Positions 1 to 50,721 of a stretch of 64,000 nucleotides of DNA are shown in pieces. Position 1 is the stretch's first letter. Each line of letters opens with the position of its first letter. The notes under the pieces were generated by a model, which ran no database searches, was not told the origin of the DNA, and saw only the letters and a program-made list of their open reading frames with translations. The position numbers were made by a program, and so were the translations under genes. Source of the DNA: Yponomeuta sedellus (taxonomy: Eukaryota > Arthropoda > Insecta > Lepidoptera > Yponomeutidae); NCBI GenBank assembly GCA_934045075.1, contig OW203723.1, positions 19,018,035 to 19,082,034 on the forward strand. The letters run 5' to 3'.

Positions 1-54
1 TTCAGTTCTTCCTATTGATTCTAATTCCATTAAAGCGGACAGGTCAAGGACACT
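1..54 (-). CDS. Exon E58 (runs off window)
   Basis: The acceptor TCAG falls just above 54 and the exon enters in phase 0, matching the phase-0 exit of E57. It reads [18 protein letters not shown] and is still open at base 1, so the gene continues left of the window. Confidence 0.65.

Positions 55-50721: not shown

What the first reader, a model, noticed from the sequence alone, without database searches (positions are those of the whole stretch)
1..50721. A ~50-kb, 58-exon gene made of repeated three-exon modules
Seen: 58 minus-strand exons whose split codons match from one to the next across the window. In the middle they recur as A-B-s trios of nearly fixed length (103-121, 116-125, 48-51 nt) in fixed phases. 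Inference: the trio is phase-symmetric, so whole modules could be duplicated or lost without a frameshift, and the gene probably grew this way. I do not recognise the protein family; it may be lineage-specific.
Basis: partly seen in the sequence, partly recalled or inferred. Interest (0 to 1): 0.88.

Follow-up and report, generated by a model that had tools for sequence, protein, structure and literature searches.

The report
Twelve-module giant gene in Lepidoptera
The exon trios are real: they belong to one large gene, so far seen only in moths and butterflies, whose protein carries twelve copies of a repeat unit that matched no known family or solved structure in our searches.

Summary
Confirmed, with corrections. 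The minus strand carries 60 phase-matched exons (reader: 58) in one open frame of 2,637 codons. The gene runs off the window's low end; four more exons in the same assembly complete it (64 exons, 55.5 kb, 2,854 aa). Twelve A-B-s trios share the same phases. Modules are only about 19% identical to each other, yet each of 12 beats all 200 shuffles in leave-one-out. Three searches gave 45 relatives, all Lepidoptera by name, none characterised. Of 23 relatives first examined, 16 show exactly 12 modules, 2 show 13 hits, 5 show 8-10. In a tree of 156 modules from 13 species each of the 12 positions is one clade: the duplications are old and the number has stayed put. A two-module model is confident (pLDDT 93: helix, beta hairpin, three helices) but has no significant PDB or Pfam match. 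The gene ends in a DM9 domain whose mannose-binding lysine is gone. The trio is a phase 1-1 cassette ending in the loop between folded modules. Best reading: a non-secreted scaffold. Function, expression and partners are untested.

The parts
50616..50721 (-). exon N1 with start codon (MSKVASK...)
49368..49545 (-). exon N2, PPYPPY motif shared with relatives
44798..48778 (-). exons N3-N7 (48778-48604, 47799-47696, 46929-46786, 45669-45552, 44873-44798): conserved N-terminal domain; N6 uses a GC donor
   Evidence: 51-80% identical by exon to the four of five relatives that have this part
43843..44268 (-). exon N8, 142 aa, Cys/Ser/Thr-rich, symmetric; no match in the 45 relatives, so a lineage insert or a doubtful exon
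42280..43296 (-). exons N9-N11 (43296-43223, 42410-42398, 42306-42280), leading into module 1
40587..42127 (-). module 1: A 42127-42016, B 41492-41368, s 40637-40587
37711..39068 (-). module 2: A 39068-38957, B 38202-38078, s 37761-37711
35178..36265 (-). module 3: A 36265-36154, B 35977-35307 (with a Ser/Pro-rich insert of about 178 aa), s 35228-35178
34247..34920 (-). module 4: A 34920-34818, B 34590-34466, s 34297-34247
30919..33794 (-). module 5: A 33794-33674, B 32803-32679, s 30969-30919
29923..30701 (-). module 6: A 30701-30599, B 30395-30271, s 29970-29923
28703..29554 (-). module 7: A 29554-29446, B 29298-29183, s 28753-28703
24159..28612 (-). module 8: A 28612-28510, B 28158-28037, s 24209-24159
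19005..23321 (-). linker exons G1-G9 (23321-23279, 23169-23144, 22723-22711, 22532-22513, 22424-22400, 22021-21639, 21265-20508, 19997-19895, 19076-19005), Gly/Pro/Ser-rich, 481 aa; five of the nine set by eye
12822..15233 (-). module 9: A 15233-15113, B 13096-12948, s 12872-12822
   Evidence: s by eye
10183..12495 (-). module 10: A 12495-12384, B 11728-11601, s 10233-10183
5670..6951 (-). module 11: A 6951-6843, B 6306-6182, s 5720-5670
   Evidence: s by eye; weakest module (12.3 bits)
2567..3445 (-). module 12: A 3445-3334, B 2932-2793, s 2617-2567
1874..2482 (-). exon C1: conserved Cys cluster VCKC..QCELWC..RPxCxC, possible metal site (inference)
211..1547 (-). exons C2-C4 (1547-1386, 904-777, 324-211): conserved C-terminal region; four further exons, with the DM9 domain, lie outside the window at G000 C2:19017985-19013249

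Best explanation
This is one 64-exon lepidopteran gene for a protein of about 2,850 residues. Its body is twelve diverged copies (8 + 4, separated by a length-variable linker) of a ~96-residue module, each modelled as helix, beta hairpin, helix, helix, long helix. It also has a conserved N-terminal domain, a Cys cluster, a conserved C-terminal region and a final DM9 domain. Shown: the exon phases, the module homology, the same number and order in the sampled moth and butterfly families, and a confident module model without a significant match. Inferred: the array grew by tandem copying of a phase 1-1 three-exon cassette whose ends sit in the loop between folded modules, before the sampled families split, and then froze because each module took its own role. 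Inferred and less sure: the protein works as a long, non-secreted scaffold, two module arrays joined by a hinge, with the DM9 domain reused as a contact domain rather than a mannose lectin.
For: Open 64-exon frame with AG acceptors and GT donors except one GC donor. Same phases in 12 of 12 trios. Leave-one-out above all 200 shuffles for 12 of 12 modules; 44 of 66 profile pairs at 90% or more. Exactly 12 module hits in 16 of 23 relatives. Each position one clade, 11 label changes, the minimum possible. Mean paralogue identity 19-21% in four species against 29-75% for orthologues. Two-module model pLDDT 93.1, pTM 0.81; same elements in 8 modules of a longer model, with the hairpin of module 3 poorly formed. 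The s/A junction falls at residue 100-101, in the loop between helices 76-99 and 105-116 (mapped by eye). A query of 5 of the 12 modules matched only this gene in its genome, 12 of 12 matches. No hydrophobic start: maximum 19-residue hydropathy near the N-terminus -0.26. DM9 lysine replaced in 32 of 32 readable relatives and here.
Against: No transcript or protein data were available. Some annotations split the gene (Amyelois P0022 and P0026; Choristoneura P0023 and P0029). The scaffold role rests only on architecture. The codon model was trained on the exons it scored, and 13 of 60 exons differ from the automatic chain. Exons N8 and parts of the linker have no counterpart in relatives. Seven of 23 relatives do not show 12 hits, nor does any of 22 later ones, which the search selected for shorter length (0-11 hits).
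Confidence: 0.6

Rival explanations
1. Two neighbouring genes: one with the N-terminal domain and modules 1-8, another with modules 9-12, Cys cluster and DM9, joined only by gene prediction across the linker.
Against: 20 of the 23 relatives have module hits on both sides in one model, including Bombyx mori LOC101739332 isoform X3, though that search favoured long proteins. Phases run through the linker without a stop. In Choristoneura the second model has 7 module hits, three of them before the linker, so it appears to overlap the first and the split is not at one fixed place.
Confidence: 0.15
2. A giant DM9 pattern-recognition lectin of the immune system.
For: This gene's DM9 domain is well above Pfam's cut-off (63 against 26.2 bits); that of the Amyelois relative matches oyster CgDM9CP-1 chains (E 1e-4 wild type, 3e-5 for a mutant chain), a mannose-binding receptor (PMC5712788: abstract and two sections read). 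A cluster of DM9 matches lies nearby.
Against: Lys43, whose change to Ala abolishes mannose binding in the oyster protein, is Ala or Thr in 32 of 32 readable relatives; the six neighbouring DM9 repeats read keep a lysine there (by eye). No hydrophobic start.
Confidence: 0.12
3. A sperm or testis structural protein, as many fast-changing lepidopteran proteins are. This can hold together with the scaffold reading.
For: Lepidoptera restriction, fast change and long architecture only (inference).
Against: Three lepidopteran sperm papers, searched in the main text for terms such as DM9, do not mention it; supplements could not be read, so this is weak.
Confidence: 0.25
4. The trios are chance or a decaying pseudogene.
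For: Some weak splice sites and one GC donor.
Against: Open frame over 2,854 codons, median exon identity 48% to a relative, shuffles score 22-55 against 817.
Confidence: 0.02

Closest known systems
DM9-domain proteins (PF11901; oyster CgDM9CP-1; Anopheles PRS1 as recalled)
   Same: C-terminal domain of the gene is DM9, with the same phase-0 intron position as three neighbouring DM9 loci (read by eye).
   Different: Attached to a 12-module array and other conserved regions; ligand lysine lost.
Helical repeat (solenoid) proteins such as HEAT, ARM and TPR proteins (recalled as a class)
   Same: Tandem, mostly helical modules in a long protein.
   Different: Module is about 96 residues and contains a beta hairpin; no Pfam repeat model matched and no structure match was significant.
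Metazoan proteins built from phase 1-1 modules (exon shuffling; recalled)
   Same: Module bounded by phase-1 introns on both sides.
   Different: Three exons per module, and the module was found only in this one gene family.

Membership tests
DM9-domain proteins | Pfam PF11901 above the curated cut-off | tested here: met
   63 bits against 26.2 for this genome's own exons, outside the window; also in relatives (not in P0023, and below cut-off in P0034)
DM9-domain proteins | Mannose-binding lysine (Lys43 of CgDM9CP-1) | tested here: not met
   Ala or Thr in 32 of 32 readable relatives of 34 with the motif, Ala here; first repeat only
DM9-domain proteins | Mannose-binding aspartate (Asp22) | tested here: inconclusive
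   falls in an alignment gap next to an Asp or Glu in many relatives
Known helical repeat families in Pfam | Match of single modules or whole protein to a Pfam repeat model | tested here: not met
   0 families for the spliced protein in two pieces, linker left out; 7 families hit by 1 of 11 modules each, best E 0.0069, none shared (module 3 not scanned)
Known folds in the PDB | Structural match of a two-module model | tested here: inconclusive
C3/PZP alpha-2-macroglobulin protein 8 (name on the Danaus plexippus relative) | Alpha-2-macroglobulin domains | tested here: not met
   only DM9 found in P0004 at E up to 1

The most novel reading that the evidence does not exclude
The module is a protein repeat fold that arose in the lepidopteran lineage, was copied to exactly twelve as a three-exon phase 1-1 cassette before the sampled families split, perhaps before the ditrysian radiation, captured a DM9 domain from a neighbouring gene cluster, and has since been frozen in number while changing quickly in sequence.
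Probability: 0.4. Interest if true: 0.75.

Novelty: new variant of a known kind. Interest (0 to 1): 0.58.

Why it matters
It is a clean case of a large protein apparently built by copying a multi-exon module, known so far from one insect order, with intron boundaries still matching the folded unit and a fixed copy number. If the fold is really new, it is a recent origin of a protein repeat that can be studied in silkworm. The gene is widespread in Lepidoptera yet unnamed, so its role in moths and butterflies is an open, testable question.

Full report
What was claimed.

Is it there? Yes. A chain search over splice sites and open frames returned 56 exons. The final model keeps 47 of them and has 60, from 50721 to 211: 2,637 codons, no stop, every split codon closed. 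The chain score is 817 on this strand, 209 on the other and 22-55 in 20 shuffles. The codon table came from the same exons, so the stronger evidence is outside the window. Over 48 exons aligned to the Parnassius mnemosyne protein, identity is 17-80% with a median of 48%; for Battus philenor the median is 47%. The B exons of modules 7 and 8 align poorly (about 17-28%). Exon N8, the insert in B3 and most of the linker have no counterpart in five relatives, and blastp of N8, the B3 insert, G1-G5 and G8-G9 against 45 relatives gave no match at E 0.01.

The gene continues. The window lies in an assembly of 657.5 Mb. In the next 10 kb below the window (L009), relatives matched the missing end. With four more exons the model has 64 exons, spans 55.5 kb and encodes 2,854 residues; a TAA follows in frame in the sequence printed. 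The last two exons carry a DM9 domain (63 bits, cut-off 26.2).

The trios. All 12 A exons have 2 leading and 2 trailing bases, all 12 B exons 1 and 1, all 12 s exons 2 and 1; s9 and s11 were found by eye in that phase. The whole module is therefore bounded by phase-1 introns. Between modules mean identity is 18.5% in the window's protein and 19-21% in three relatives. A profile from the other 11 modules scores each left-out module at 12.3-71.7 bits, above all 200 shuffles of it (maxima 4.3-9.0), and 44 of 66 comparisons between position profiles reach 90% probability. Module 11 is the weakest at 12.3 bits, and modules 5, 7 and 11 link poorly to several others, though at 91% or more to modules 1 and 2.

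Relatives. Three searches gave 5, 22 and 24 proteins, 45 different ones, all named from butterflies and moths (that the names belong to Lepidoptera is recalled). One bears the name of an alpha-2-macroglobulin protein, which its domains do not support; the names shown for the others are uncharacterised, hypothetical, unnamed or a bare gene number. Each search scored only about 7,980 candidates sharing exact words, so distant relatives outside Lepidoptera are not excluded. A module profile made from the window alone (11 modules), run on the 23 relatives then in hand, gave exactly 12 hits in 16, 13 in the two Helicoverpa proteins (module 5 apparently broken into two partial hits), and 8-10 in 5 shorter, split or gapped models. 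The 22 later relatives, which the search selected for shorter length, gave 0-11 hits. The largest gap between hits follows the eighth in 16 of 23; it follows the ninth in the two Helicoverpa proteins, and P0005, P0019, P0020, P0022 and P0023 differ. A tree of 156 modules from 13 species (four proteins with some partial hits left out) makes each of the 12 positions one clade, with 11 label changes, the minimum; the bootstrap had not fully settled, few columns were available and long branches were flagged. Orthologous modules are 59-75% identical between Epargyreus and Bombyx and 29-68% between the window and Epargyreus, so the window's lineage changes fast. Hence the copying happened before these families split (butterflies, pyraloids, Arctia and Bombyx in the tree), and number and order have been kept. 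In the window's own genome a query of 5 of the 12 modules matched only this gene, 12 of 12 matches at E 0.1 or better; a diverged paralogue is not excluded.

The DM9 end. Read by eye, it shares a phase-0 intron position with three neighbouring DM9 loci (six repeats) on the same contig, 13-39 kb past the window's other end. Capture from that cluster is an inference. In oyster CgDM9CP-1 Lys43 is essential for mannose binding (PMC5712788; abstract and sections on mannose binding and conservation read). The aligned residue is Ala or Thr in 32 of 32 readable relatives (2 of 34 unreadable) and Ala here.

How it may work. No hydrophobic start, a very long array of helical modules in two blocks, a variable linker, a conserved Cys cluster and a DM9 domain without its ligand lysine suggest a non-secreted scaffold. 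This last step is inference; no expression, localisation or binding data were found. Searches for seven LOC numbers of relatives found no paper, and three sperm papers searched for a few terms in their main text do not mention it.

Verdict. Relatives of the gene are already in databases without a function; what is new is the recognition of a twelve-fold module with no detectable kin.

Noticed in passing
window 16567-17904 (+) and 36931-37636 (+): Two Mos1-type mariner copies, mostly 94-98% alike in the longer stretches, inside two introns of the gene (the Pfam check was on the first copy).
   Followed up: partly
window 62655-62726 and 62966-63034 (+), also 11051-11464 and 57722-58034: tRNA-like matches within a short repeat present in several copies, probably a tRNA-derived SINE.
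   Followed up: partly
window 10460-10849: Long CATA/TACA tetranucleotide array in the intron between B10 and s10.
   Followed up: no
L009 5995-5912, 5846-5784, 5700-5638: Decayed partial copies of the first DM9 exon between the two DM9 exons, suggesting local tandem duplication.
   Followed up: no
G000 C2:19094791-19121019: Cluster of DM9 matches near this locus, keeping the lysine the large gene has lost.
   Followed up: partly
window 44268-43843: Exon N8 with CDACDCS/CDMCDCS motifs, symmetric and absent from relatives; could be a cassette exon or a wrong call.
   Followed up: partly
window 52177-52677 (+): An open frame upstream of the gene that looks like a membrane protein, perhaps a chemoreceptor; only a sub-threshold Pfam match.
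   Followed up: no
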